Origin: Candidatus Methylobacter titanis
GTDB lineage: Bacteria; Pseudomonadota; Gammaproteobacteria; Methylococcales; Methylomonadaceae
DNA length: 64,000 nucleotides
Assembly: GCA_029946125.1 (NCBI GenBank)
Contig: JAQSDX010000010.1
Coordinates: forward strand, 1 to 64,000
Direction: 5' to 3'
Shown: positions 4,359-18,268 of the stretch, piece after piece
How the letters are laid out: each line of letters starts with the position of its first letter
Numbering within the stretch: the first letter of the stretch is position 1
The notes under the pieces: model-generated
The model's input: the letters and a program-made list of their open reading frames with translations, nothing else
What the model was told of the DNA's origin: nothing
Database searches by the model: none
Position numbers and translations under genes: made by a program

Positions 4359-4886
4359 TCAACGCGATTGGGCTTTCCTGGCCTTGACCGGCTCGGCTTC
4401 GCCTCTTTCCTCCTGCAACTCGTGCTTGCGTTGGGTCAACGCTGCACCTAGAGCGGCGGTGTCGACCTTGGCTTTCTTTGCCTTGAGAAACATTTTTTCC
4501 TCTTCTTCCTTTACATGATGATCGATGCTCTCGCCGAGCACGGTAACCGTTGCGTCGTAGTGGTCGTGTGCTGGTGTCATGGCCTCTAGTTGCGCAATGA
4601 GGTTCTTGGCTCCGGCATGTTCCACGTCAGCTTCGTCCATCAAATCGTCGTCCTTGATGGCGGCGCGAACCGCCGGGTAAAAGATTTCTTCCTCGGCTTG
4701 GGCATGGATAGTCAGCTCCATGCATATCTGCCGAACCACTTCTGCTTTTGCTTTATCGCTGCCATCGCCCTTGGCGAGTTTGGCAAAATCCGCAAATAGT
4801 TTTTTTACCTTCTTGTGGTCTTCAGTGAGTAACGTGATGGCGTCCTCTCCGTGCTGCATGGCGGGTTTAAGTGCGGTCTTCGTCAT
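4359..4886 (-). CDS. Hemerythrin HHE cation-binding domain protein
   Basis: 175 residues from the ATG at 4886, which has GAGGAC upstream; the frame extends ten codons further without an RBS. Two HHE-type repeats are visible: TEDHKKVKKLF, HAQAEEEIFYP, then EHAGAKNLI and DHHVKEEEEKMF. These supply the His and Glu ligands for a di-iron centre of hemerythrin type. The C-terminal tail is Lys/Glu/Arg-rich. Such cytosolic proteins bind O2 or act in oxygen/iron/NO homeostasis; which applies here cannot be told. It is monocistronic, in the same orientation as the DUF883 pair but separated by ~150 bases. Confidence 0.88.
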   Translation of the reverse strand: MTKTALKPAMQHGEDAITLLTEDHKKVKKLFADFAKLAKGDGSDKAKAEVVRQICMELTIHAQAEEEIFYPAVRAAIKDDDLMDEADVEHAGAKNLIAQLEAMTPAHDHYDATVTVLGESIDHHVKEEEEKMFLKAKKAKVDTAALGAALTQRKHELQEERGEAEPVKARKAQSR

Positions 4887-5830
4887 AACTTTGTCCTCAA
4901 AAATTCTAAAGGTCAACTTGGGGGTTCCAAGTCATGCGGCCGTTTACGGCTGCGGAATGTCGCGGGCTGCCCCCCCCCCGGACCGACTCAGAAGCTATGT
5001 CCCTAGGCGATGGTTCGTCTCGCTTGTAGCCATAGTAGGTTCGTCAGTCCGCTAAGTCGGTTCGTTGCCTAACATAGCGTAGGATTTTTTTTTGCGGCCT
5101 CGGAAACCCCTGCGAATCGGTGACGGCAGCAGACTCCGAATTTATGAAATGATCATTGATCGAGATCGGCCTGGTGGCATTGCAGGCATACTGCAGAGCC
5201 TACCGGGCAATAATGGACCGTTGTTCTTGAAAATGCCGGGCTTAAAGGCGTCGGTTAAAAAGCAATCCTGATTAGCAATTGGCCATAAGACAAACCCACG
5301 GCAACGCTGTACCGAAAACAGCCCACATCAATACGGACTCGAAGTTCAATAGAACAAGACGCTTTCATTGATCAATTCTGAAACAAAGTCATGGAGGAGG
5401 ATCATCCATCCAGCTCGTCTGCAATCAGAGCCCCGGTTCAGCATCATTCCGGCAAGTGCGTATGATTGACGTAGATGACAAGGGCGGCATTTCAAGTCGA
5501 GTTATACCATCGGGCGCCAAGTGCTACACCCTCGTTGGGTCTCACAATGAGTCTTTAAGCTACCTTGTCATCTACACAAGTATTGGAAGGTTTACCGAAG
5601 GAAAATTGAACTAAAAAAGAAATTTGGGAAATCAAAATAATTTTCAAAAAACCTGAGTCTGGCCAGATAAAAATAGTTTATCTCCAATGTTCGACAACGC
5701 ACCGACTCTTAGACGATTTTCCCATAAATTATACTAGCTTTCATCAGGATGTTTTTTAACAGCATGTTTGAATGTAAGCCAAAATCAATAAAAAGACATA
5801 TATATACACGAATATTTTAGGAGATATGTC
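4887..5830. other. Long intergenic region with a 13-bp inverted repeat
   Basis: About 940 bases without a convincing gene. It contains a C10 homopolymer near 4969-4980 and a perfect 13-bp inverted repeat, GTAGATGACAAGG (5471-5483) and CCTTGTCATCTAC (5563-5575), enclosing ~80 bases. The element spans 105 bases and could be a miniature mobile-element remnant. The last ~250 bases are AT-rich and probably hold the promoter of the small ORF at 5831. Confidence 0.55.
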
Positions 5831-5911
5831 ATGGGTAAATATTTTATAGGCTGGCTGGTAGGCGTGCCGGTGATTGTTTTGGTTATTATTTACTTTTTGT
5901 TCAACCATTAA
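5831..5911 (+). CDS. 26-residue single-span membrane miniprotein
   Basis: A 26-codon ORF starting MGKYFIGWLVGVPV and ending in an aromatic/Asn-His tail. Nearly the whole chain is one hydrophobic span. A strong AGGAGAT at 5819-5825 sits six bases before the ATG, much better than expected by chance for so short a frame. No family is recognised. Small one-span proteins of this kind are common in stress regulons, and its neighbours are stress genes. Whether it is translated is unproven, but RBS, start and hydrophobicity agree. Confidence 0.6.
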   Translation: MGKYFIGWLVGVPVIVLVIIYFLFNH

Positions 5912-6053
5912 TCAGTAAATTGTTGGTTTACCCACCTGCCGTCATTTAAAAGACTGTAAAGGTCGGTGTGCCATCTCTGGTCAGCATGGTTTTGAAATCA
6001 TCAGATGTTAAAACTTAAACTGATCCTTTTGCATTTTTTATAAGGAATCCATT

Positions 6054-6314
6054 ATGAAAGCAACAGAGAAGACCAATACAGTCGATGATACCGTTGACCG
6101 ACTTAGATCAGGAGCTCACTCGACTGTCGACAAAGTAGCCAATGCAACCACTCAGGCGGCAGAAGTACTGGGTCAAAAAGGCGAGCAATTGAAAAAAGTG
6201 GAGCAGCAATTTTTAGAAAACTGCCGGGGTTACATTTATAAAAACCCGGTAGCTTCATTAGGTATAGCCGTCGGAGCCGGTTTTCTGTTAAGCCGTCTGA
6301 TGAGCAGTCGCTAG
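6054..6314 (+). CDS. DUF883 (YqjD/ElaB family) protein, third paralogue
   Basis: 86 residues. It has the same architecture as the two genes at 3.7-4.2 kb but on the opposite strand, with a ten-residue longer N terminus. Visible landmarks are the VDKVANATTQAAEVLGQKG helix, the ENCRGYIYKNPVASLGIAV core and a C-terminal tail anchor ending FLLSRLMSSR. It is expected to sit in the inner membrane by its C-tail and bind ribosomes in slow growth (family knowledge). A TAAGGAAT upstream serves as RBS. It begins the plus-strand stress series 6054-8684. Confidence 0.88.
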   Translation: MKATEKTNTVDDTVDRLRSGAHSTVDKVANATTQAAEVLGQKGEQLKKVEQQFLENCRGYIYKNPVASLGIAVGAGFLLSRLMSSR

Positions 6315-6481
6315 ACCATCGACCTGGTTGCCGTGCGATAACAGGTTTTACCGAGCAACAACGGATTAACGATGCCGTTTGTGGTTAGGTAAAGTGGGTG
6401 GTTATTCGTTGAATCAGAAAGATAAAGCCGATGCCATTCAATTATTTCGAAAAAGAAACACTCACTATTTAGGAGATCACT

Positions 6482-6892
6482 ATGTCTACACGCATATTAT
6501 TAGCTATGTTCACTTTGACGGGCAGTTTAATAATGATGACGGGTACTGTTCGAGCTGAACAGAATATCGCCCTCTATTTAGCCGCTGGCGGCTCAGCATT
6601 GGAAAATACCGAGCGCAATGTTCGCGACAGAGATGATGCTAATTTAACCCCGGAAGATCAAAAGGAAACGGGAGACGATATCAATATCACAGCTGCCATG
6701 CGGCAAGTTGTAGTTAAAAATGATTCGCTATCAGTCAATGCGCAAAATATAAAAATCATCACACGTGATGGCGTCGTGACTTTGCGCGGGCCTGTTGAAA
6801 GTGAAGCTGAAAAAATTAAACTGCAAGATATCGCTAAGAAAACGCCTGGTGTAATTCAGGTAAATAATGAACTTGAACATAAAGCGCCATAA
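6482..6892 (+). CDS. Periplasmic BON-domain protein
   Basis: 136 residues with an N-terminal signal peptide (cleavage probably after VRA near residue 25) and one BON domain in the C-terminal ~70 residues: MRQVVVKNDSLSVNAQNIKI, then ITRDGVVTLRGPVESEAEK, then TPGVIQVNNEL. BON domains bind phospholipid or membrane surfaces in OsmY/DolP-like proteins. The role is probably envelope stress protection. A TTAGGAGATC RBS is present. The next gene starts 17 bases after the stop, suggesting co-transcription with the glycine-zipper protein. Confidence 0.87.
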   Translation: MSTRILLAMFTLTGSLIMMTGTVRAEQNIALYLAAGGSALENTERNVRDRDDANLTPEDQKETGDDINITAAMRQVVVKNDSLSVNAQNIKIITRDGVVTLRGPVESEAEKIKLQDIAKKTPGVIQVNNELEHKAP

Positions 6893-6908
6893 AGGCCCAG
6901 GAGATAAC

Positions 6909-7424
6909 ATGACTAAAGCAGTTTTTTGTATCGCTCAAAACACAGATCAGGCAGAGAGCATTGTTAATGACCTGATTACCTCAGGCTTTTCAAATAATGA
7001 TATATCGGTGCTGTTTCCCGACAAATCCAGCACCCAGGATTTTGCGCATGAAAAGCACACTAAAGCGCCGGAAGGAGTTGCTATTGGTGGGTCAGTGGGG
7101 TTAGGCACGGGCGCTGTACTCGGTTTGTTAGCCGGGATTGGTGCTTTGGCTATCCCTGGTGTCGGTCCGTTAATCGCCGCAGGGCCCATTATGGGCGCCT
7201 TGAGCGGCGCGGCGGTAGGCGCGGCCACCGGCGGTTTGGCGGGTGCTTTAATCGGGCTGGGTATTCCTGAGTATGAAGCCAAGCGCTATGAAGGAAAAAT
7301 CACGGGCGGAAACGCGTTGATTTCCGTACATGCGGCTACCAGCGAAGCCGTTGACAACGCAAAAAAAATATTCGAGCGCAACCATGCCCAGGATATTTCC
7401 TCAACTGATGAAAAGTCAGTTTAA
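6909..7424 (+). CDS. General-stress glycine-zipper membrane protein (YflT/17M-like)
   Basis: 171 residues from the ATG at 6909, which has AGGAGAT immediately upstream; an earlier in-frame ATG at 6867 lies inside the preceding gene. The N-terminal ~60 residues (FCIAQNTDQAESIVNDLITS, then NDISVLFPD) resemble the general-stress 17M/YflT alpha-beta domain. A Gly/Ala-rich double membrane-inserting segment (residues ~60-120) follows, with many GxxxG pairs, then a C-terminal domain GGNALISVHAATSEAVDNAKKIFE. Its biochemical role is unknown. It clusters with BON, DUF883 and ferritin-like genes in a stress set. Confidence 0.75.
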   Translation: MTKAVFCIAQNTDQAESIVNDLITSGFSNNDISVLFPDKSSTQDFAHEKHTKAPEGVAIGGSVGLGTGAVLGLLAGIGALAIPGVGPLIAAGPIMGALSGAAVGAATGGLAGALIGLGIPEYEAKRYEGKITGGNALISVHAATSEAVDNAKKIFERNHAQDISSTDEKSV

Positions 7425-7478
7425 CTTTGATGATGCTTATTGCACCTAATCAAAAAACAATCACCTAGGAGTTTTATT

Positions 7479-7922
7479 ATGCATAACATTGAAACACTCA
7501 ACGAATTTTTGAAAGATGAATTATCAGCAACGGAAACTTATGGACAGGCGTTGGATAAACTTCGGGAGGATGCCAAATTAGGCAAATCAGAGGATTTATT
7601 GCCCATTTATGAAGATCATAAAGACGCGGTTTCCAGTTTGCAGGCACTCATCACTCGACTGGGCGGAACGCCCTGTGAGGATTCAGGAGCCTGGGGAGCT
7701 TGGGCGAAAATAGTCCAGGGAGGCGCTAATCTGCTAGGTAAAGAAGTTGCACTAAAGTCTTTACAGAGCGGAGAAAAAAGTGGCGCAGAGGCTTATGAGG
7801 AAGCGCTGCAGGATACCGAGCTGGATTCAGAAATTCACTCTTTGATTGAAACCAAACTGCTGCCTGCTCAACAAGCCCATATACGCATTTTGGATCGGCT
7901 TTTGGGCGCGGAAACTGATTAA
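7479..7922 (+). CDS. DUF2383 ferritin-like four-helix protein
   Basis: 147 residues from the ATG at 7479 (CTAGGAG RBS at 7465-7471); the longer frame from 7440 has no RBS. The chain is almost all helix. Glu/His residues are spaced as in ferritin-like bundles: DELSATETYGQAL, then EDHKDAVSSLQALI, then EAYEEALQD, then LLPAQQAHIRILDRLL. These fit the DUF2383/PA2169 family of putative di-metal proteins. Function is unproven, possibly iron or redox stress. A likely terminator follows at 7955-7992. Confidence 0.78.
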   Translation: MHNIETLNEFLKDELSATETYGQALDKLREDAKLGKSEDLLPIYEDHKDAVSSLQALITRLGGTPCEDSGAWGAWAKIVQGGANLLGKEVALKSLQSGEKSGAEAYEEALQDTELDSEIHSLIETKLLPAQQAHIRILDRLLGAETD

Positions 7923-9170: not shown

Positions 9171-12100
9171 TCATTCCAACTCCAATTTGGCCACAATCGC
9201 ATCAAGGTCAATGCTCTGCCCGCTATCTCTGAAGGCATAGTGGCCGTTAAAATGAATATTCCGCCAGGCCGCTGGAGAGACTTTCTTGATGAGCGCCAAA
9301 ATTTTCAGTTTGGGGGACGCTTCATATTTGTCGAGTATCCGTGACAGGATAGCGGAATTATAATAAATGATCGCATTTGCGATTAGCCGTCCACATTCGT
9401 TACTGATCTCAATATCCAGATCCGTCCTGCCAGTGAGTTCCTTCTTGCCGCCAACCTGCGCGATTGCTGCTCGCAGTTGGTAATAGGATTCAATCCGGTT
9501 TTGCGAACGATGCGAGTTGCGCTCGATTTGTGGGTCTCGCAGGTAACGCAATGTGTAGATGCTGCGGATCAGCTTATCGAACTCGAAGACCCCGCTACGG
9601 GTGGGGTTCGATTGCGTGTAGGTACATAATTTCCGAATCAGCGTGCTTTGGGTCATCTCCTTGATCCCCAGAGTGGCCACGATCTGGTCGATATTGGATT
9701 TCTCGTCTTGAACCGCCTGCAAGTCGATACTCCCAACAGGCTGAATCAGGCATTTCTCGTATTGCACAGGATCACCGCAGCAATAAAGATGCTTCAATTG
9801 CACATCAAGGTTAGTGAAACGCGGTTCGAACCGCAATCCGAACCAGTACGTGATTGCGAAATTGGCCTTGTTAACGCTATGCATGTCACCGGTAATCACC
9901 ATTGGTACGATGTCGGATGTATTCTGGTACCAGATGTCGAAAACAAAATGGGCTTCAAATTCATGGGCGCCGATCAGCCCCCCATTCACAGGCACATGGT
10001 TACATAGCATGGTGTAGGCCACCACGCCTTTCCCCCGGCCAAAATATTTTCTGGAATGCCGCGCTTTGATGGTGGGGTGTTCGACCCCAAGTTTTTGCCC
10101 ATCAACAGCACCGTACAATACCCCCAGATCGAACGAGTAATGTGGAAAAATAGACAGCCCTGCAATAGCATTGCTGATGGCGTCGTTTGCTTTTTTCAGA
10201 GTAGCCCGCCGTAAGTATTGCTGATGCGTGGTCTCCAGGATGTGATAGGGAATATCGCTGGTCTGTGCCATTTTTAGATTGCCGTAATTCATCGCTTGAG
10301 CAATGATGACCGCAAACAGACTGTCCTTGTCGGCGATTTGCTTGGCGTAGCGCGGCTGCAACGGCGTCATTGCCGACAAAAAGTGGCATTGCTCATTAAC
10401 AAAACGAAGTACATCGGCAACATTGCAGAAGCCCAGCTTGCTGTAAAAACTTTCCTGGAGTGCTTTATCGTTGCTGGCCTTGTATTTATGCCATGTGAGT
10501 GTTTTGAGCTGACTATCGTATTCAAGGTGTTTTAGCTTTCCTTGGCGGAGCTCGCTGTCGAATGCCAGCCAAAGGCTATGAAGTTCATCGGTCAAGACTT
10601 TAAGTTGAGCTTCTATGGGCTGACGTACCCAGGGAATGTCTAGCTGCTGAAGCACCGTCGGCATCTTCTCCAGGGAAACGAGTTCATGCGTGAAACATTG
10701 GTGCTGGACGCTATCTGCCAGGTAGAGCTCACCTGACTTGAAGCGTTTCCTGATTTGCCTATAAATCCAAAATTCGTACCGGTCAGCCTGCACACCCGTG
10801 GCTTTTCCTTGCGCATCAATGCTCAGCAGATAGCGTCGCAATCGCGGCGAGACAGTCTTTTCTAAGCACTCGGTCAGCGGTTGCAGCGACAAGCGTTGTT
10901 GTTTGGCAAACACGCCATTCATTAAAGTTAGCGCCGCCAACCACGGGTTATCCGGCACCGTACTGGCAAAATCGAGTGCGCAGTAAAGCGGACGCAAGTG
11001 CTTACGACAATGAGCAGACAACTGTTCCACCACTTGCCACCGCAATTCCATTTTATTCAACGGTTTCTCGCACAAGCGTTGACCAGTGATTTGTAATGTA
11101 TCTTTAGGCATGATGGCAAAGGCCTGCTGGCGGACTTCGCCGAAAGCGGTGGCGTCGATTACCTGCTCATCGACATAGATCAGCAACAAGCGCCCAATCT
11201 GAGAGGTTTCCTGTTGTCGATTAGACTGTTGTTGGGCAATGAGCTTATTCGCCTTATGTTTGGTGTCGTCTTCGAGCTGCTTCATTCGGTATCCCAAGGC
11301 GTCAACCAGATTATCAGTCAGTTGCCGGTAGCGAAGCCAGACGTAACATAATAAGTATAGATGGGTCTGTTCCTGCTTCAGGCGGCGAAGATCGTAGATC
11401 GTGTAAAAGTGCGCGAGACTCGCGTAATAGTTAAGGTTCTGCTGAGAAATTGCCAATTTTGGCAAGAGCGCTTTAGCCCGTTGATATAAGGGTTCCAAGG
11501 CGGTGCGCTTCTGCCGCTCCAAAACCATCATGCGGTAACCAAAGTGTTTGGCGTCTTGTTTGAGAGCGGCCAATCCGGATAAAGTATCATCGCGCACAAG
11601 AAGTTGCTGGAGCGCTGTTTTTGCTGAATCGTCTAGCATCTCGGTGAGCAACACGCCCAGTCGCTTACGTTCGTTGGACAGTGTTTCGCTGATGAGAGAC
11701 TGCAACGTCGTATAGCCTGGTCGAACGATCTTCTGATCATTTAAATAGGCAATAAGCTTTACCAAGATAAAACTGGGTGTGACATCGCGAGAGACAACCT
11801 GAGTAGCTCGTTCGACAAGTGACGGTAAAAAATCCGCCGCCCATAGACGATAGCCAAACAAGTTAACGATCAATACCCGTTGTGCGTAATATTCATGCTT
11901 GGTAATCGGTACCGGAAGAAAGGCCAAATCATTAAAGTAGCGTGTCAGGATAAAAGTACAGTCATCTTCCACTTCATCCCAGGAAAATTGGAAGAAGGCC
12001 TGTTTGGCCTTGAAATAACCAATTTGCAATGCGCAGTAAACTTGAGCATGCACACTCCGTTGGTCGAGTACCAGTGCCAGCTCCTGTTCGGTGAAGATAA

Positions 12101-12200
12101 AATATTCCATACGTTGACTGTCGTCAAAATCAGGCAGCCCATACAAGGCGAATTGCTCTTGGCTTGACAGTATGTTAAGTCTTTCGCTTTTAGTCAGCAT
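9171..12200 (-). CDS. tnpA: Tn3-family transposase with DUF4158 N terminus
   Basis: 1009 residues, the usual Tn3 TnpA length. The N-terminal ~160 residues (KSERLNILSSQEQFALYGLP, then FILTRYF) form the DUF4158 DNA-binding region. The C-terminal ~400 residues are the DDE catalytic domain. First Asp is in GAVDGQKLGVEH, second in MVITGDMHSVNKANF, and the Glu is in QNRIESYYQLRAAI. It catalyses replicative transposition by binding the terminal inverted repeats, the nearer of which abuts its stop codon. The frame is intact with no frameshift, so the element may still be active. It is transcribed away from the recombinase gene across a 137-base intergenic region that should hold the resolution site. 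Confidence 0.95.
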   Translation of the reverse strand: MLTKSERLNILSSQEQFALYGLPDFDDSQRMEYFIFTEQELALVLDQRSVHAQVYCALQIGYFKAKQAFFQFSWDEVEDDCTFILTRYFNDLAFLPVPITKHEYYAQRVLIVNLFGYRLWAADFLPSLVERATQVVSRDVTPSFILVKLIAYLNDQKIVRPGYTTLQSLISETLSNERKRLGVLLTEMLDDSAKTALQQLLVRDDTLSGLAALKQDAKHFGYRMMVLERQKRTALEPLYQRAKALLPKLAISQQNLNYYASLAHFYTIYDLRRLKQEQTHLYLLCYVWLRYRQLTDNLVDALGYRMKQLEDDTKHKANKLIAQQQSNRQQETSQIGRLLLIYVDEQVIDATAFGEVRQQAFAIMPKDTLQITGQRLCEKPLNKMELRWQVVEQLSAHCRKHLRPLYCALDFASTVPDNPWLAALTLMNGVFAKQQRLSLQPLTECLEKTVSPRLRRYLLSIDAQGKATGVQADRYEFWIYRQIRKRFKSGELYLADSVQHQCFTHELVSLEKMPTVLQQLDIPWVRQPIEAQLKVLTDELHSLWLAFDSELRQGKLKHLEYDSQLKTLTWHKYKASNDKALQESFYSKLGFCNVADVLRFVNEQCHFLSAMTPLQPRYAKQIADKDSLFAVIIAQAMNYGNLKMAQTSDIPYHILETTHQQYLRRATLKKANDAISNAIAGLSIFPHYSFDLGVLYGAVDGQKLGVEHPTIKARHSRKYFGRGKGVVAYTMLCNHVPVNGGLIGAHEFEAHFVFDIWYQNTSDIVPMVITGDMHSVNKANFAITYWFGLRFEPRFTNLDVQLKHLYCCGDPVQYEKCLIQPVGSIDLQAVQDEKSNIDQIVATLGIKEMTQSTLIRKLCTYTQSNPTRSGVFEFDKLIRSIYTLRYLRDPQIERNSHRSQNRIESYYQLRAAIAQVGGKKELTGRTDLDIEISNECGRLIANAIIYYNSAILSRILDKYEASPKLKILALIKKVSPAAWRNIHFNGHYAFRDSGQSIDLDAIVAKLELE

Positions 12201-12337
12201 AGATCACATGCAAATTGTATATGTAAAAACGAGCGTTAATATAGCATCATAATGACCATGTGAAATATAATGAAAGAGCTGTCCATTTTGGATTGTTTTA
12301 CGGTATATTTTAGGTTAAAACTTAACAGGCACTATTT
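12201..12337. promoter_or_regulatory. Candidate res site / divergent promoters between tnpA and recombinase
   Basis: AT-rich 137-base region between divergent transposition genes, the standard position of the res site and both promoters in Tn3-type elements. An imperfectly spaced palindrome GTTAAAACTTAAC lies at 12314-12326, 12 bases before the recombinase ATG, and could be a recombinase subsite. I could not align a full three-subsite res. Confidence 0.45.
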
Positions 12338-12961
12338 ATGGGGAAAATCGTCGCTTATTTGCGTGCTTCTACCGACAAGCAAGACTTGAATCACCAAAAG
12401 CTGGAAATTTTGGAATTTGCGCGGAAAAAGGAGATACGTATTGATGAATTTGTCGAGATCACAATCTCATCGCGCAAAACCAGCAAACAACGCCGGATAG
12501 ATGAATTGGTGGGAATGCTGACCGAGACCGATACGCTGGTAGTCACAGAGCTCAGTCGACTGGGACGCAGTACAGCAGAGGTCATCGCGTTAATCAATGC
12601 CCTTGTTCTACGCAATATCCGCGTCATTACGATCAAGCAAAATCTGGATATTGCGAATCAGGATATGAATTCCAAGATCATTGTTACGCTGTTCTCGTTG
12701 TTCGGCGAATTGGAGAGGGATTTGATCAGTTTGCGCACCAAAGAAGCTTTAGCTGCAAAAAAGGCGGGGGGTCAACAACTCGGCAAGCCAAAAGGTACAT
12801 TACAGAAAAGTAAATTCGACAATAGTCTGGATCGTATCAAGGAATTGCTCGGATATGGCCTTTCCGTCAGGAAGATTGCAAAAGTGTTGGGCTACTCAAG
12901 TCACATCGCCCTCAATACTTATATCAACAAACGCGGTTTACAGCAGTCGATTAAGAGTTAG
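12338..12961 (+). CDS. Serine recombinase (resolvase/invertase family)
   Basis: 207 residues. The N-terminal catalytic domain begins GKIVAYLRASTDKQDLNHQ with the nucleophile Ser11 in the RxS motif. Further conserved arginines lie in VTELSRLGRSTAEVIALIN, and the E-helix LFSLFGELERDLISLRTKEA follows. A C-terminal helix-turn-helix (GYGLSVRKIAKVLGYSS) binds DNA. It would resolve the cointegrate made by TnpA by site-specific recombination at res. It is divergent from tnpA. The family also includes invertases, so resolvase activity is inferred from context. Confidence 0.9.
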   Translation: MGKIVAYLRASTDKQDLNHQKLEILEFARKKEIRIDEFVEITISSRKTSKQRRIDELVGMLTETDTLVVTELSRLGRSTAEVIALINALVLRNIRVITIKQNLDIANQDMNSKIIVTLFSLFGELERDLISLRTKEALAAKKAGGQQLGKPKGTLQKSKFDNSLDRIKELLGYGLSVRKIAKVLGYSSHIALNTYINKRGLQQSIKS

Positions 12962-13682: not shown

Positions 13683-13988
13683 TCATTTTTTGCTCAAAAC
13701 CCACTGCACCAGTTTTTTTGCTTCTTCTGGCGTTACTGAATTTGGCGGCATCGGAATCTGGCCCCAAACACCACCACCGCCTTTAATCACCTTCTGGGCG
13801 AGTTGATCGACAATATTTTGTCCCGCATATTTCGCGGCAACATCCTTGTAGGCTGGACCGAGGACCTTCTTATCCACAGCGTGGCAGCCTAGGCAACCTT
13901 TACTTTGAGCGAGTGCTTCGTCGGCTTGCGCCGCTTCCGCTACGAGTACGAGGCTTACGAGCAGTGCGGTTATTGTGGCTAGTTTCAT
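13683..13988 (-). CDS. Class I cytochrome c (c-551/c-552 type), periplasmic
   Basis: 101 residues with a 22-residue Sec signal (MKLATITALLVSLVLVAEAAQA). One haem-binding CLGCH lies at about residue 32, and the distal Met ligand is in IPMPPNSV near residue 80. The C-terminal helix VTPEEAKKLVQWVLSKK completes a c-551-type fold. It would carry single electrons in the periplasm. A good AGGAG precedes the ATG. The first 89 bases overlap, in another frame, the 3' end of the long fusion gene upstream, so the two are one operon and translation may be coupled. The pairing suggests it accepts electrons from, or works beside, the membrane flavoprotein; that is inference. Confidence 0.92.
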   Translation of the reverse strand: MKLATITALLVSLVLVAEAAQADEALAQSKGCLGCHAVDKKVLGPAYKDVAAKYAGQNIVDQLAQKVIKGGGGVWGQIPMPPNSVTPEEAKKLVQWVLSKK

Positions 13989-16900
13989 TAGACTCTCCTG
14001 ATGGATTATGTGTAGGGGGGGTAGCGTCCGTTGGCGTGGTTTCTATCGAATTAAAGGACTCGATAGCCTGTTTCACCAGATCGTGATCCAGCGTGTAGAC
14101 GGGTGATTCTGCGTTGGTCTCGGTTGTGAGCGGTTTGAATATCCAAGCGCCCTTGGCGGAATTTCGAACAGATTCGGCAATGATTAGCGCTTGAGCTTGA
14201 TTTCGGCAAGAAGCCTCTAGGCGCATGGCCTCGTCAACGGCTTGACCGATCAGCGAGTAACTCATCTTTAATGATGATCCAAAATTACCCTCCATCACAG
14301 TCCCCGAGGCTAAGCCGAAACAGCCGATGGCATTGGTGTATAACGGATGGTCGCGGCCACGTATTTGTGCCAGGCCTTGCAAGGCATCCAGAGCGGATGC
14401 GATGGCTGCGTCAGCCTGCTCTGGGTTAAAATACGCAACAATCGAATCGCCAATATAGTCTGCTACCTGTCCACCGTGATCTATCACACAACTGGAAACG
14501 ATTTCGAAGAATTCCTGGATTAGTTCCGATACATTTTCGGTGGAAAACTGATTAGATATTTTAGAGAGTCCAGAGATACTGGCGTTCAGCACTAGTCGCT
14601 CACTTCGCTTAACCGGTACTGTGAGAGGATTGATCCCTTCGGTGAGAAGTTTCAACACGGATGGTTGAGTGTAGCGACCAATAATGTGATGGGATTGCGC
14701 GATAGTGCGGAGCATCATGCGAATGGACTGTAGCAGCACGCCACTCTCTTCGTTCAGGCATACTGTGCGCATACCCCAATCCGTAAAAAGACGATCTGGC
14801 AGACCGTACTCCACACTCAAGATGGTCATATCCCGGTGACGAGGGTCGATTCGGATTTTTTCCAGAAGCTGATCCAGGACGGCTTCTGGGCCCTCGAGTA
14901 TCTGGAAAAAATACTCATGTACCGAGATCAATACACCTGTCAAGCCTAAGCGATCGTTATTCAAGCTCGACAGCCGACCTAGTTCGGCGATTTCTTCGTC
15001 TGTGAAGTGAGCATGCATAGTACTGACATACATCAATCGCTTGATACCCTCTGACTGCTCCGACGTTAGACGATCCTTCACCAGATGCTGCAGAGCCTTG
15101 TTCATCAATCCCGATCCCTTAGTCAGCACCTTGAAATCACTCTGGGCGAGCACCGTCAACTCGGTTGGGGTAATGCAACGCACCGTTTCCGCTCTGCGGT
15201 TGAGATAATTCTGAACAATTTCGCCGAAGTAATCTCCGGTTCCCACTTCACCCACTTTGAGCCCGTCTTTAATGATTTCTAGTCGGCCTGATTCAACCAC
15301 ATAGGCCATCTCAGCCTCATCACCCTGGCGATAGATTTCGTCGCCCTTGGCAAAACGCACCTTTTGCAAGCGAGCCTGAGGCGCGTGAGCCAGTACCGCT
15401 ATGTCGCTTCTGAAGGGAATAACCATTGCCCAGTCGATCATTATGCGCAGGTTCTTTTCAAGTCCCGGCATGGCGAGCAGTTGGCTAAGCCGAGAAAGAA
15501 ACCAAGCTATACGACCGCTGAAGGTAAAGAACTTTACATCACAAAACGAGTGAAAGCCGATGGCATAAGAGGTCAACTGTCTATAGCGCGGTCTGTAGGG
15601 ACGGGGTGAGTAACCTTGAGTCACAGCCCATGCATTATATCCGGCTGTCTCGCCTACTTTCTCCCAATCGGCTGCCGTCAGGTAGGACTGATCAACGCTG
15701 GTCGTGTTAGGACCTGCAATCCATAGATGCGGGTGTCCCGCAAGAGCCAAATTAACGGATGTCGTCAGCGGCAAGTTCAATCCACATGTACCCTGAAGCA
15801 CCAGCACCGGCATGGTGAAACATGCGTTTATAGTCATACCCACTGGCCGATCTTCACGCGCTTTTAGGAGTATTCCGTCTTCGGCTATACTCGAAACTGC
15901 AACCCCCTTGTGCAGAGTTACACCGGCTTTTTCCAGGCAAGTATCCCGCAAAAAGAGGTGCTGTATCTCGAAATCCGAGTGCTTGTAGTTGGCTTCCTCG
16001 TAAAGGTGCACTTTCCATCCGACATTCTGAAGTACCGGATAGTTATGCTCCATGGCTCTCAGCATTTGACATACTTCGGCAGCCACACTGCATGCCAATT
16101 CCCCTGAACCAACGACGGCAACGTTGAGCAGTCGCGCTCGCTCTACGGGATCTTCTGTAAACTCAGCTTGTTCAACCAATTCCAATAAGCATTTGCGGAT
16201 ATGCAAAGCGTCGCCTACCGAGTCGATGGGCATAGCGTAGGAAAGCATCCCTGGAATCGATGTCGTATTGGGTTTTACCGTCGGCGCCAGAACAAGCTCC
16301 GTGTAAGGCAGTGTAATACGTTCGCCGTTGGGTCTTCGTGCTTGAATTTGCAGGTTATCTACGTCAATGGCATCGAGTCGCGCGACTACGACGTTAACCT
16401 TAGGGATAATGCGGCGGATGGGATTGACGACATTACTGGGCTGCACGCTGCCGCCTATCACCTCCGGCAATAGCGGATTCAGTACGAAGTTAGAGCTGTC
16501 ATGAAGTAGGGTAACCTTAACGTTGGTATAAGATCCGATCAGTCGCGCTATCTCCATGGCTGCATGCAGGGCCGCAAAACCACCGCCGACCACAAGTATT
16601 TCTGCAGCGTTATCGCGAGGCTCGGGTCGATGCCAATAACCGGCGGAATTAATGAAGCATGACAGCATGACACCATAGAACAGGATGTGTTCGGTGAGGG
16701 TTTCCGGTAGCAAACTGGCAAAAAGTATGAATGCGGTCAATAAAAATAGTGACAATGGCCGCAACAAGACGCCTGCAATCATTAATAGTCCGACCGAAAC
16801 TTCGACCAGTGCCATAACCAGAGAAAAGACCTCCGGCGCGGCAGACAGTATCGGCACCTGGTAGGTATTGATGATACTCACCGCCAGATTCGGCTGCAGG

Positions 16901-17676
16901 ATTTTGAAAGTTACCCCGAGGTAAAGCATGGTAAAGCCAGTAAGCACCCGAAGTATAAACTGGGCACGCGATCTCGGCTGGGCTTCTAGCCAGGCTTGAA
17001 TAGCCCGAAACGACTCTGGTGTTGATAGTGGCAGATAGTGTCGCCCCGGACCCTGTAACAACAGGTAAAGGCAAGCACCGAGAATCGCACCGCCATAGGC
17101 AAGAAATCCAGGCCCGAATAACAACCCTCCGATAAGACCGAGCCCCATAATGATGACAGCGCAAGCACGCACATAGATGCCAAATAGAATGGCTAAGCCT
17201 GTGAGGAGTTCAACCAATTGCAACCAACCCCATCCAAAACCTAGGTACTTGAGTTCAAGATCTGGTGCGAACAGCGTCGGCGAAGTAAAGGGTTCAACGC
17301 CGGCACGAGGTTCGATGCCAAGTGCCGATGAAATCAGCATCCACGCTAAACATACTCGGAGGATGCGAGGGACATGCTCGCCATAAGAGGTCAGCCTTGC
17401 CTGAAGGTCTGGAAACAACTCCCGAGCACCCGTGAAGCCCAGTCTTATCCAGCCAGCGATAAAAATCAGAAATAATGAAACGATAGCAAAGTTAGTGAAG
17501 GATAGCTCAGTGTAGAGTGAAGGCTTAGGAAGATTATTCAAGTAGTCGATCTGTTGCGGCGTTAAAACCCAACTTTCGTGGGCATTGCAATCTTCCACAT
17601 TCACCAGTGCAAGTAAGAACAATGTCAACTGGCTCTGCAGCTGAGGTGACACAGGAGATTTAGTTACAGACTTCAT
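13900..17676 (-). CDS. DoxX-like / NDH-2-like / cNMP-binding / BLUF / cyclase-like fusion protein
   Basis: 1258 residues in one intact frame. Residues ~56-345: about eight membrane spans resembling DoxX-type proteins. ~357-700: two-dinucleotide-fold flavoprotein like type II NADH dehydrogenase (ILVVGGGFAALHAA for FAD, NVAVVGSGELACSVAAE for NADH), but the usual C-terminal GD of the FAD site reads AGPN at ~654-657. ~755-865: cyclic-nucleotide-binding domain (GDYFGEI and RRAET). 878-970: BLUF domain with Y883, N906/N907, Q925, W967 and M969. ~975-1022: linker like that of bPAC (QSHHIIGRY, EGINPLTV). ~1027-1197: class III cyclase fold, closest to Beggiatoa bPAC, with S1033 replacing the first metal Asp, D1077 kept, D1073 in the adenine-Lys place, and Q1145 and D1148 replacing Asp/Asn. 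The basic Ser/Thr-rich tail overlaps the cytochrome c gene. Confidence 0.85.
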   Translation of the reverse strand: MKSVTKSPVSPQLQSQLTLFLLALVNVEDCNAHESWVLTPQQIDYLNNLPKPSLYTELSFTNFAIVSLFLIFIAGWIRLGFTGARELFPDLQARLTSYGEHVPRILRVCLAWMLISSALGIEPRAGVEPFTSPTLFAPDLELKYLGFGWGWLQLVELLTGLAILFGIYVRACAVIIMGLGLIGGLLFGPGFLAYGGAILGACLYLLLQGPGRHYLPLSTPESFRAIQAWLEAQPRSRAQFILRVLTGFTMLYLGVTFKILQPNLAVSIINTYQVPILSAAPEVFSLVMALVEVSVGLLMIAGVLLRPLSLFLLTAFILFASLLPETLTEHILFYGVMLSCFINSAGYWHRPEPRDNAAEILVVGGGFAALHAAMEIARLIGSYTNVKVTLLHDSSNFVLNPLLPEVIGGSVQPSNVVNPIRRIIPKVNVVVARLDAIDVDNLQIQARRPNGERITLPYTELVLAPTVKPNTTSIPGMLSYAMPIDSVGDALHIRKCLLELVEQAEFTEDPVERARLLNVAVVGSGELACSVAAEVCQMLRAMEHNYPVLQNVGWKVHLYEEANYKHSDFEIQHLFLRDTCLEKAGVTLHKGVAVSSIAEDGILLKAREDRPVGMTINACFTMPVLVLQGTCGLNLPLTTSVNLALAGHPHLWIAGPNTTSVDQSYLTAADWEKVGETAGYNAWAVTQGYSPRPYRPRYRQLTSYAIGFHSFCDVKFFTFSGRIAWFLSRLSQLLAMPGLEKNLRIMIDWAMVIPFRSDIAVLAHAPQARLQKVRFAKGDEIYRQGDEAEMAYVVESGRLEIIKDGLKVGEVGTGDYFGEIVQNYLNRRAETVRCITPTELTVLAQSDFKVLTKGSGLMNKALQHLVKDRLTSEQSEGIKRLMYVSTMHAHFTDEEIAELGRLSSLNNDRLGLTGVLISVHEYFFQILEGPEAVLDQLLEKIRIDPRHRDMTILSVEYGLPDRLFTDWGMRTVCLNEESGVLLQSIRMMLRTIAQSHHIIGRYTQPSVLKLLTEGINPLTVPVKRSERLVLNASISGLSKISNQFSTENVSELIQEFFEIVSSCVIDHGGQVADYIGDSIVAYFNPEQADAAIASALDALQGLAQIRGRDHPLYTNAIGCFGLASGTVMEGNFGSSLKMSYSLIGQAVDEAMRLEASCRNQAQALIIAESVRNSAKGAWIFKPLTTETNAESPVYTLDHDLVKQAIESFNSIETTPTDATPPTHNPSGESNETSHNNRTARKPRTRSGSGASRRSTRSK

Positions 17677-18268
17677 GATTCCAACCCACCCTTACTGTTT
17701 TTATTAAAATTCCAACTTCTTAGTCGAAAGGTTAATCTCGCTATTTAATAGCGCTTGGCACTTCGAATACGTTTTTGCAATTTAAACATTGCGGTTTATT
17801 TTTTTACAATTAACAGATTCTCTCTTTTAAGTAAACAGTTTTCCTGTTTTTGGTGTTGGCTATGGGTGACTCTAAATGGGGAACACATGCGTATAGGAAA
17901 AACTTAGTGATTTTGCCCCCTACGTTGCCCAGCAAGACGATCAAAAAAAAGCGGGTTCTTCAGGAATTGCAGTCGTAACCTCTACACATAGTGGCATTAT
18001 GCAATTTATGTGTACTACTGGTTGTGATCAACCACGGGAAATCTGGAAGAGCCAAAAAGCGAAGAGTCTGCTGATTTTTTGAATAGAGTGATTGGCAGCA
18101 ATGATCCAGTTTGCAGTCGATGGTCTATTACTACTGTTTGGCCGCAACTGGCCGATTAGGTGAGGTCGCCAATGGCTGCTTTGTAGACCTCAAGTTCGCA
18201 GAATATGGATTTGGCTGACAGGCCGGTTTACTATAAAAATAGGCGGCTTTTTGACTGGAATACCCAGT
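17677..18268. other. Upstream region of the cargo operon with degraded coding fragments
   Basis: AT-rich DNA at 17690-17830 probably holds the promoter of the minus-strand operon. Further right, two short open frames in different phases (plus strand, 17909-18082 and 18061-18159) overlap as if one gene had been broken by a frameshift, but I recognise no family. The right TIR begins at 18269. Confidence 0.4.

What the first reader, a model, noticed from the sequence alone, without database searches (positions are those of the whole stretch)
13900..17676. Five-module protein: DoxX-like, NDH-2-like flavoprotein, cNMP-binding, BLUF and cyclase-like domains
One continuous frame reads as a membrane DoxX-like region, a two-fold flavoprotein, a cyclic-nucleotide-binding domain, a BLUF domain with all key residues (Y883, N906/N907, Q925, W967, M969), a bPAC-type linker (EGINPLTV) and a class III cyclase fold. 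I know of no described protein with this combination. It could couple blue light and cNMP level to electron flow at the membrane.
Basis: partly seen in the sequence, partly recalled or inferred. Interest (0 to 1): 0.95.

Follow-up and report, generated by a model that had tools for sequence, protein, structure and literature searches.

The report
Blue-light membrane receptor with dead cyclase
Methane- and ammonia-oxidising bacteria carry a conserved five-part membrane protein that keeps the key residues of a blue-light sensor and of a cyclic-nucleotide-binding site, while its attached cAMP-making enzyme has lost its catalytic residues, as if a light-to-cAMP relay had been built into a single molecule.

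Summary
One uninterrupted 1258-codon frame (13900-17676, minus strand) encodes a DoxX-like membrane domain, an NDH-2-like fold, a cNMP-binding domain, a BLUF domain and a PAC-type linker plus cyclase fold. It is a conserved family in methanotrophs and Nitrosomonas, under purifying selection in the pairs tested. The functional reading needs correcting. BLUF and cNMP key residues are invariant in the rows examined. The cyclase's first metal-binding Asp is absent in 40 of 40 fused rows with that segment, so this is very probably a pseudocyclase. The NDH-2-like part lacks the GD, AQxAxQ and GxGxxGxE motifs. Fourteen genomes of the order carry a split version: a three-module protein plus a separate PAC, side by side on one strand in six. 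Thirteen of the fourteen split PACs whose cyclase could be read keep all four catalytic residues. Quick trees place the fused clade once, inside the standalone PACs. Best reading: a light-made-cAMP circuit became one molecule, in which light acts through a dead cyclase and a cNMP domain on a membrane module, perhaps quinone-linked. Photoactivity, binding and output are inferred. My paper searches found no description. New variant of a known kind.

The parts
13900..17676 (-). complete five-module ORF, 1258 aa, including stop
17685..17693 (-). Shine-Dalgarno-like AAGGGTGGG upstream of the ATG
   Evidence: sequence
17581..17676 (-). N-terminal segment residues 1-32, signal-peptide-like by eye, ending before the conserved HE[RS]W
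   Evidence: read from sequence (no signal-peptide tool run); HE.W nearly invariant
16621..17580 (-). DoxX-like membrane domain, residues 33-352
   Evidence: Pfam DoxX; AF2 model mean pLDDT 88.9
15382..16608 (-). NDH-2-like two-dinucleotide-fold module, residues 357-765; FAD GxGxxA kept, GD / AQxAxQ / GxGxxGxE lost
15112..15375 (-). cNMP-binding domain, residues 768-855, with E819 and R828 of the phosphate-binding cassette
   Evidence: the role of E and R is recalled family knowledge
14761..15045 (-). BLUF domain, residues 878-972 (Y883, N907, Q925, W967, M969)
14611..14760 (-). PAC-type connector helix and EGINPLT linker, residues 973-1022; lowest or tied-lowest dN/dS of the six modules in 6 of 7 informative pairs
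14125..14610 (-). pseudocyclase, residues 1023-1184 (S1033 at metal Asp1, D1077 at Asp2 kept, D1148 at transition-state Asn, R1152 kept)
13903..14064 (-). C-terminal tail, residues 1205-1258, low complexity; its end overlaps the cytochrome gene in another frame
13683..13988 (-). small c-type cytochrome (CLGCH), overlapping the 3' end of the main ORF by 89 nt

Best explanation
This is a blue-light- and cyclic-nucleotide-responsive membrane receptor that arose by fusing a photoactivated adenylyl cyclase (PAC) onto a membrane protein bearing a cNMP domain, after which the cyclase became a catalytically dead transmitter. Proposed working: blue light switches the FAD of the BLUF domain; the movement passes through the conserved PAC connector and linker and the paired pseudocyclase domains to the neighbouring cNMP domain; light and cNMP occupancy (cAMP made by other cyclases) together set the state of the DoxX-like/NDH-2-like membrane module, which acts near the quinone pool or a c-type cytochrome in the answer to light and oxidative damage. 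Shown here by computation: the architecture, its conservation, loss of cyclase catalytic residues in the fused rows examined, kept BLUF and cNMP residues, split relatives whose PACs look catalytic, one fused clade on both trees, purifying selection. Inferred: photoactivity, cNMP binding, that split PACs signal to the three-module protein, direction of signal flow, and the output.
For: Residue counts: metal Asp1 in 0 of 40 fused rows with the cyclase segment (S 32, C 4, N 2, T 1, K 1) against 17 of 17 standalone rows; Asp2 in 4 of 40 against 16 of 17; N in 4 of 39 and R in 7 of 39 against 17 of 17 each. BLUF Y, N, Q, M 40 of 40 and W 39 of 39; cNMP E and R 40 of 40 fused and 18 of 18 three-module rows. 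Split state: 14 order genomes hold both a three-module protein and a PAC; adjacent on one strand in 6, convergent nearby in 2, on other contigs in 6. Trees: fused rows are one clade for both parts (SH-aLRT 100), nested within standalone PACs when rooted on OaPAC. dN/dS: pseudocyclase 0.10-0.30 in 7 informative pairs, against 0.03-0.12 in 8 standalone pairs, both far below 1; connector 0-0.06 in the fused pairs. Both folds retained. Four alphaproteobacterial genomes with a three-module protein gave no match in the BLUF region at E 1e-6 but have other class III cyclases, suggesting cNMP as the older input and the membrane part as the output. Neighbours: tri-haem CCP/MauG cytochrome directly downstream in 24 of 32 fused rows of the first set; LOV-like, photolyase and Msr-like genes beside some.
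Against: No experiment. Loss of the cyclase residues follows what looks like one fusion, so the 40 rows are not independent. The window protein still has Asp1077 and Arg1152, and the N. aestuarii fused protein scores just over the Guanylate_cyc cut-off (22.2 against 21.9). The full-length model has pTM 0.44, so domain contacts are unknown. No genome-wide background was run for the neighbouring light genes; of 66 loci only 6 have the LOV-like gene and 4 a photolyase, and the window has none of the eight neighbour families searched in its first 30 kb. The CCP gene is absent beside the window, G175, G159, G155, G070, G272, G055 and G017, and none was found in the loci of G298, G310 (L137, L145) or Nitrosomonas. 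Residue A829 of the cNMP cassette differs between fused (mostly V/I/A) and three-module rows (mostly T), so ligand preference may have changed. G297 (72% complete) shows only an N-terminal fragment and no PAC.
Confidence: 0.55

Rival explanations
1. An active fusion enzyme: the PAC part makes cAMP in blue light, which feeds its own cNMP domain and drives NDH-2 electron transfer.
For: PAC fold retained end to end; cNMP cassette kept; window keeps D1077 and R1152; N. aestuarii homologue just over the Guanylate_cyc cut-off.
Against: Metal Asp1 missing in 40 of 40 fused rows with the segment; Guanylate_cyc 12.5 bits in the window against 52.6 in a split PAC; in the NDH-2-like part GD Asp 0 of 40 and NADH-motif Glu 0 of 39 fused rows at the aligned columns.
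Confidence: 0.07
2. The pseudocyclase is not only a transmitter but a nucleotide sensor: it binds ATP (or cAMP) without turnover, so the protein reads light, energy charge and cNMP together.
For: K or R kept at the position after A1072 (the base-contact Lys of PACs, role recalled) in 34 of 40 fused rows and the KMDYT segment widely kept; purifying selection on the domain.
Against: Window, G175 and G310 have D at that position, three others E; metal and phosphate ligands mostly gone; no structure with ligand.
Confidence: 0.2
3. The cyclase part is a decaying passenger after fusion, with only BLUF acting, or nothing acting.
For: dN/dS of the cyclase part is higher than in standalone PACs; many different residues at Asp1 and at Arg; one Nitrosomonas MAG copy (L158) ends inside the domain.
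Against: dN/dS still 0.10-0.30; 29 rows have an uninterrupted frame across residues 31-1182; the connector is among the most conserved parts.
Confidence: 0.1
4. The membrane/NDH-2-like part is itself only a redox or membrane-bound sensor, and the real output is a partner protein such as the downstream cytochrome peroxidase.
For: NDH-2 motifs lost (GD Asp 0 of 40 fused and 0 of 18 three-module rows at the aligned column); CCP/MauG cytochrome downstream in 24 of 32 fused rows of the first set.
Against: The cytochrome would be periplasmic while the light and cNMP modules would be cytoplasmic (inference from family knowledge); CCP absent beside the window clade, G070 and Nitrosomonas.
Confidence: 0.25

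Closest known systems
Bacterial BLUF photoactivated adenylyl cyclases (OaPAC, bPAC)
   Same: Residues 875-1204 align end to end with BLUF, connector helix, INPL linker and class III fold; all BLUF residues checked are kept
   Different: Catalytic Asp1 and Asn missing in the window; Asp1 missing in all 40 fused rows with the segment; fused to a membrane, NDH-2-like and cNMP part
[quoted passage not shown]
   Same: Two-dinucleotide fold, TM-score to target 0.81-0.82 for C. thermarum NDH-2 4nwz, FAD GxGxxA
   Different: No GD, AQxAxQ or GxGxxGxE at the aligned places; L131 has FAD GxGxxG, YD, GD, GxGxxGxE and the AQxAxR variant (read from the printed sequence)
DoxX/DoxD-like membrane proteins; GGCX membrane domain
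   Same: Pfam DoxX just over cut-off; predicted fold resembles GGCX, Z 10.3, rmsd 5.1, 231 aligned
   Different: Longer than the 85-position DoxX model, and fused; the GGCX likeness is weak and may be a common arrangement
Three-module relatives in Methylococcus-like MAGs, Methylotetracoccus, Methylolobus, Methylocapsa and Reyranella genomes
   Same: DoxX-like + NDH-2-like + cNMP at about 47-56% identity
   Different: No BLUF or cyclase in the chain; in 14 order genomes a separate PAC occurs; in the four alphaproteobacterial genomes searched, no BLUF-region match

Membership tests
BLUF photoreceptor | BLUF domain above Pfam cut-off | tested here: met
   80.1 bits against cut-off 25
BLUF photoreceptor | Tyr, Asn, Gln of the flavin hydrogen-bond network plus Trp/Met (recalled roles) | tested here: met
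   Y883, N907, Q925, W967, M969; Y, N, Q, M in 40 of 40 fused rows, W in 39 of 39
BLUF photoreceptor | light-induced red shift | not testable with these tools
   needs spectroscopy
Photoactivated adenylyl cyclase | BLUF joined by connector helix and linker to a class III cyclase fold | tested here: met
Photoactivated adenylyl cyclase | two metal-binding Asp | tested here: not met
   S1033 and D1077; Asp1 in 0 of 40 fused rows, 17 of 17 standalone
Photoactivated adenylyl cyclase | transition-state Asn and Arg | tested here: not met
   D1148 in place of Asn, R1152 kept; N in 4 of 39, R in 7 of 39 fused rows
Photoactivated adenylyl cyclase | light-dependent cAMP formation | not testable with these tools
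   needs assay
NDH-2 | two-dinucleotide fold | tested here: met
   TM-score to target 0.81-0.82 for 4nwz
NDH-2 | FAD GxGxxG or GxGxxA | tested here: met
   G364, G366, A369; 38 of 38 fused rows; 14 of 18 three-module rows have T at the second Gly
NDH-2 | GD pair (strictly conserved per PMC5299459, passages) | tested here: not met
   GP in the window; Asp in 0 of 40 fused and 0 of 18 three-module rows at the aligned column; four fused rows (G175, G159, G155, G310) have a GD a few residues further on, not aligned with it; present in L187, L130, L131
NDH-2 | quinone-site AQxAxQ | tested here: not met
   AADWEK aligned in the window; second Ala in 0 of 39 fused and 0 of 18 three-module rows
NDH-2 | NADH motif GxGxxGxE | tested here: not met
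   GSGELACS in the window; Glu in 0 of 39 fused and 0 of 18 three-module rows; L187 also lacks it
cNMP-binding domain | domain over cut-off with Glu and Arg of the phosphate-binding cassette | tested here: met
   49.9 bits; E819, R828, 40 of 40 fused rows with the segment
cNMP-binding domain | ligand binding and preference | not testable with these tools
   needs calorimetry
DoxX family | Pfam DoxX over cut-off | tested here: met
   24.9 against 23.6, marginal
GGCX-like quinol-using membrane fold | structural match | tested here: inconclusive
   Foldseek E 0.2, probability 0.97; VIA Z 10.3, within the range of common helical arrangements

The most novel reading that the evidence does not exclude
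A second-messenger circuit was captured into one polypeptide. A PAC that signalled by diffusible cAMP to the cNMP domain of a neighbouring membrane protein fused to it; afterwards the cyclase lost catalysis and became a mechanical relay, so light now acts on the target with no cAMP made in between, while the cNMP site was kept for a second input. The receptor may govern how methane- and ammonia-oxidisers answer the blue light that damages their monooxygenase-based respiration.
Probability: 0.5. Interest if true: 0.88.

Novelty: new variant of a known kind. Interest (0 to 1): 0.76.

Why it matters
It would be a natural case of a PAC turned into a pseudoenzyme transmitter, with the unfused, catalytic-looking arrangement still present in living, cultured relatives (Methylotetracoccus oryzae C50C1 and Methylolobus aquaticus FWC3, named), so the step from diffusible messenger to in-chain coupling can be tested directly. 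It also gives a concrete photoreceptor candidate in two guilds whose light inhibition is on record: AMO inactivation by light (PMC9797979, passages) and light inhibition of methanotrophy (PMC12211021, passages). No link between the protein and those effects has been tested. For optogenetics it offers a BLUF-pseudocyclase scaffold that may gate a membrane protein without raising cAMP.

Tried and rejected
Assembly chimera or frameshift: rejected, since 28 of the 36 matching family genomes (own genome included) have a match running from residue 31 or earlier to residue 1182 or later; the other 8 are partial. Active PAC: rejected on residues. Canonical NDH-2: rejected on motifs. Idea that Nitrosomonas has no other cyclase, raised: withdrawn after one search found other class III cyclases in the four Nitrosomonas-group genomes searched; the window genome has one other class III and one class I cyclase. 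A genome-wide background for the neighbouring light genes was not computed. The PDB sequence search showed no match for the membrane part among the 60 of 136 rows listed; Foldseek had no match at E 0.001 or less for it. NCBIfam gave only matches below its cut-offs.

Papers: searches for this protein gave no description, but searches list 20 of 112 and 15 of 324 hits, and hits were seen as listings only except these, seen as passages: PMC4844311 (lists short BLUF and one BLUF-GGDEF/EAL for a Methylococcales species), PMC9043183 (not used further), PMC6937261 (not used further), PMC10634658, PMC5299459, PMC9797979, PMC12211021. One search's one hit (PMC9020721) was not read. Searches served for light inhibition; (DoxX and quinone) gave nothing used.

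Limits of the counts: trees are quick IQ-TREE searches with SH-aLRT support only; 10 row names were dropped by hand from each to thin it, and rows under 600 or 200 residues of the module were left out; L187 is a very long branch. The residue table holds 42 fused rows; G016 and one Nitrosomonadaceae MAG give two contig pieces each; fragments G136, G141, G265 were not fetched and G286 was left out. The dN/dS pairs were chosen by hand as close pairs. The class and phylum searches scored at most 2 candidates per genome.
Full report
WHAT IS THERE. The frame 13900-17676 (minus) is one open reading frame of 1258 codons with an ATG and an SD-like sequence. Pfam finds DoxX (just over its cut-off), Pyr_redox_2, cNMP_binding and BLUF; Guanylate_cyc is below its cut-off. 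By sequence, residues 875-1204 match OaPAC and bPAC. An AlphaFold2 model of residues 28-1205 (49 aligned rows, mean pLDDT 67.7, pTM 0.44, so domain arrangement is not to be trusted) matches PAC structures (4yus, E 1.6e-33, TM-score to target 0.81) and NDH-2 (4nwz, TM-score to target 0.81-0.82). The membrane part alone models well (mean pLDDT 88.9); its best likeness is the membrane domain of GGCX, a vitamin K hydroquinone-using enzyme, at Foldseek E 0.2 / probability 0.97 and Z 10.3, rmsd 5.1 over 231 residues. This is weak, and such Z is common for helical bundles.

IT IS A FAMILY. In 237 genomes of the window's family, 36 (own genome included) match at E 1e-60 or better, in 7 of 29 genera; 28 of them span residues 31-1182 or more and 8 are partial. 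In 311 genomes of the order, 57 match in some part, in 15 of 50 genera; besides the family these are fused G070, G298 and G310 (G310 partial), split or PAC-only genomes, and fragments. Samples of 369 class genomes and 398 phylum genomes, at E 1e-30, gave outside the order only pieces: a DoxX-like protein alone, NDH-2 with or without cNMP, or standalone PACs. A named scan with the first three modules found 56 loci: Methylobacter, Crenothrix, Methylumidiphilus and others in the fused state; Methylolobus aquaticus, Methylotetracoccus oryzae and Methylococcus-like MAGs in the split state; Nitrosomonas in the fused state (N. aestuarii Nm36 and one MAG full length, one MAG copy cut short, one MAG with two contig pieces); and a Methylocapsa MAG, Reyranella and other alphaproteobacterial MAGs with three modules or, L187, two. 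The closest relative, G175 (85% identity), is of another genus than the window, while same-genus homologues that span most of the protein are at 51-54%, and Nitrosomonas lies inside the methanotroph clade; both suggest horizontal transfer.

THE CYCLASE IS DEAD BY SEQUENCE. Of 42 fused rows, 40 have the cyclase segment (two genomes contribute two contig pieces each). Metal Asp1 is present in 0 of 40, against 17 of 17 standalone rows including OaPAC. Asp2 is kept in 4 of 40 (window, G175, G070, G298), the transition-state Asn in 4 of 39 and Arg in 7 of 39; standalone PACs keep them in 16 of 17, 17 of 17 and 17 of 17. The one exception among standalone PACs, G309b, is a second copy lacking Asp2; the copy beside its three-module gene is cut by the contig end. 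Three PACs from outside the order keep the first Asp by reading. In contrast BLUF Y, N, Q, M are kept in 40 of 40 and W in 39 of 39, and cNMP E and R in 40 of 40 fused and 18 of 18 three-module rows. Against this: the N. aestuarii fused protein scores 22.2 bits for Guanylate_cyc, just over the cut-off of 21.9, while a split PAC scores 52.6 and the window 12.5.

SPLIT STATE AND HISTORY. Fourteen order genomes carry both a three-module protein ending near residue 872 and a separate PAC: G304-G309 adjacent on one strand (in G309 the neighbouring PAC is a fragment at the contig end), G295 and G296 convergent nearby, G087, G096 and G300-G303 on different contigs. Of these split PACs, 13 keep D, D, N and R and G309b lacks Asp2. 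G297 (72% complete) shows only an N-terminal fragment; G093 and G099 have a PAC only. Trees of the first three modules (47 rows) and of the PAC module (51 rows) each make the fused rows one clade (SH-aLRT 100), and rooted on OaPAC the fused cyclases sit inside the standalone ones. The simplest history is one fusion followed by, or together with, loss of catalysis. Since that is one event, the 40 rows are not independent tests. In four alphaproteobacterial genomes with three modules, no match in the BLUF region was found at E 1e-6, but other class III cyclases were, so cNMP looks like the older input.

SELECTION. By NG86 counts on hand-chosen close pairs (8 pairs, one identical and uninformative), the pseudocyclase has dN/dS 0.10-0.30, the connector 0-0.06, BLUF 0-0.14, cNMP 0-0.20, NDH-2-like 0.04-0.16, DoxX-like 0.05-0.14. 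Cyclase domains of standalone PACs have 0.03-0.12 and their connectors 0-0.13 (8 pairs). So the dead domain is relaxed but still constrained, and the path out of the BLUF domain is among the most conserved parts. In OaPAC the connector helix is held to dimerise the protein and carry the signal (PMC10634658, passages).

THE NDH-2-LIKE PART. Against the motif list of PMC5299459 (passages), FAD GxGxxA is kept, but at the aligned columns the GD Asp is present in 0 of 40 fused and 0 of 18 three-module rows, the NADH-motif Glu in 0 of 39 and 0 of 18, and the second Ala of AQxAxQ in 0 of 39 and 0 of 18. Four fused rows have a GD a few residues downstream, so a shifted pair cannot be wholly excluded there. 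GD is present in the distant two-module relative L187 (which lacks the Glu and AQxAxQ) and in the cNMP-bearing NDH-2 proteins L130 and L131. Pyr_redox_2 matches nearly the full profile in L130 and L131 but ends at position 214-232 in the four three- and five-module proteins scanned. The module may still bind FAD or NADH; it is unlikely to be an ordinary NDH-2. The loss is shared with the three-module proteins, so it precedes the fusion.

NEIGHBOURS. In the first set of loci, a tri-haem cytochrome (Haem_bd + CCP_MauG + cytochrome c, Pfam on one member) lies directly downstream on the same strand in 24 of 32 fused rows; 8 lack it (window, G175, G159, G155, G070, G272, G055, G017) and 3 rows end at a contig edge. 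None was found in the loci of G298, G310 or Nitrosomonas. The window clade instead has a small c-type cytochrome overlapping the 3' end by 89 bases; G310 has it too, and G175 has a broken version without the haem motif. Of 66 loci of unequal length scanned for eight neighbour families, 6 have a short LOV-like protein (PAS by Pfam; LOV by a recalled NCRFLQ motif) and 4 a photolyase: G070, G130, G131 and Nitrosomonas L186 have both, G258 and G309b the LOV-like gene only; Msr-like pairs (Oxidored_molyb, Ferric_reduct) lie in G070, G130, G131 and G258. The window has none of the eight in its first 30 kb. This points to light and oxidative stress in part of the family but does not prove it.

OTHER INPUTS. 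The window genome holds four BLUF genes, one further class III cyclase, one class I cyclase and nine cNMP domains at E 0.001, so cAMP can be made elsewhere.

CONCLUSION. Best reading: a blue-light and cNMP receptor in the membrane whose PAC part has become a transmitter. Architecture, conservation, residue loss and history are shown by computation; photoactivity, binding, signal direction and output are inferred. AMO light inactivation and its wavelength dependence (PMC9797979, passages) and light inhibition of methanotrophy (PMC12211021, passages) make these hosts a fitting place for it.

A recount confirmed the GD and residue counts and added the four rows with a nearby unaligned GD, the CCP absences in G298, G310 and Nitrosomonas, and the N. 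aestuarii Guanylate_cyc score; none changes the odds given.

Noticed in passing
window 9171-12961: Tn3-type transposase (DDE_Tnp_Tn3, minus strand) with a divergent resolvase/invertase (plus strand) lies just beyond the cytochrome gene.
   Followed up: partly
window 13683-13988 and L073 11747-12125: Small cytochrome c overlapping the receptor gene; in G175 the homologue is split over two frames and the haem CxxCH is lost, or the assembly has an error there.
   Followed up: partly
L072 7843-8610 and L064 15-3071 (G016): In one genome the linker-cyclase part starts inside a contig as a 256-aa open frame while the rest ends at another contig's edge; it may be a truncated or misassembled copy.
   Followed up: no
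L158 9863-13357: A Nitrosomonas MAG copy ends early inside the pseudocyclase (frame matches to residue 1135; the read-on match has one stop).
   Followed up: no
L187 9848-12283: An alphaproteobacterial two-module DoxX-like + NDH-2-like protein that keeps the GD motif and has no cNMP domain by Pfam; possibly close to an ancestral form.
   Followed up: partly
L186 8750-15391: In a Nitrosomonas MAG: SRPBCC-like gene, short LOV-like gene, the five-module gene, a small secreted-looking protein and, on the other strand, a photolyase in a row.
   Followed up: partly
window 4359-7922: Hemerythrin, BON-domain, YflT-like (below cut-off) and DUF2383 proteins close together, stress-type by name.
   Followed up: no
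L130 4405-6039 and L131 9128-10759: NDH-2 proteins with a C-terminal cNMP domain; GD and an AQxAxR-type quinone motif are present, so possibly a cNMP-regulated NADH dehydrogenase in its own right.
   Followed up: partly
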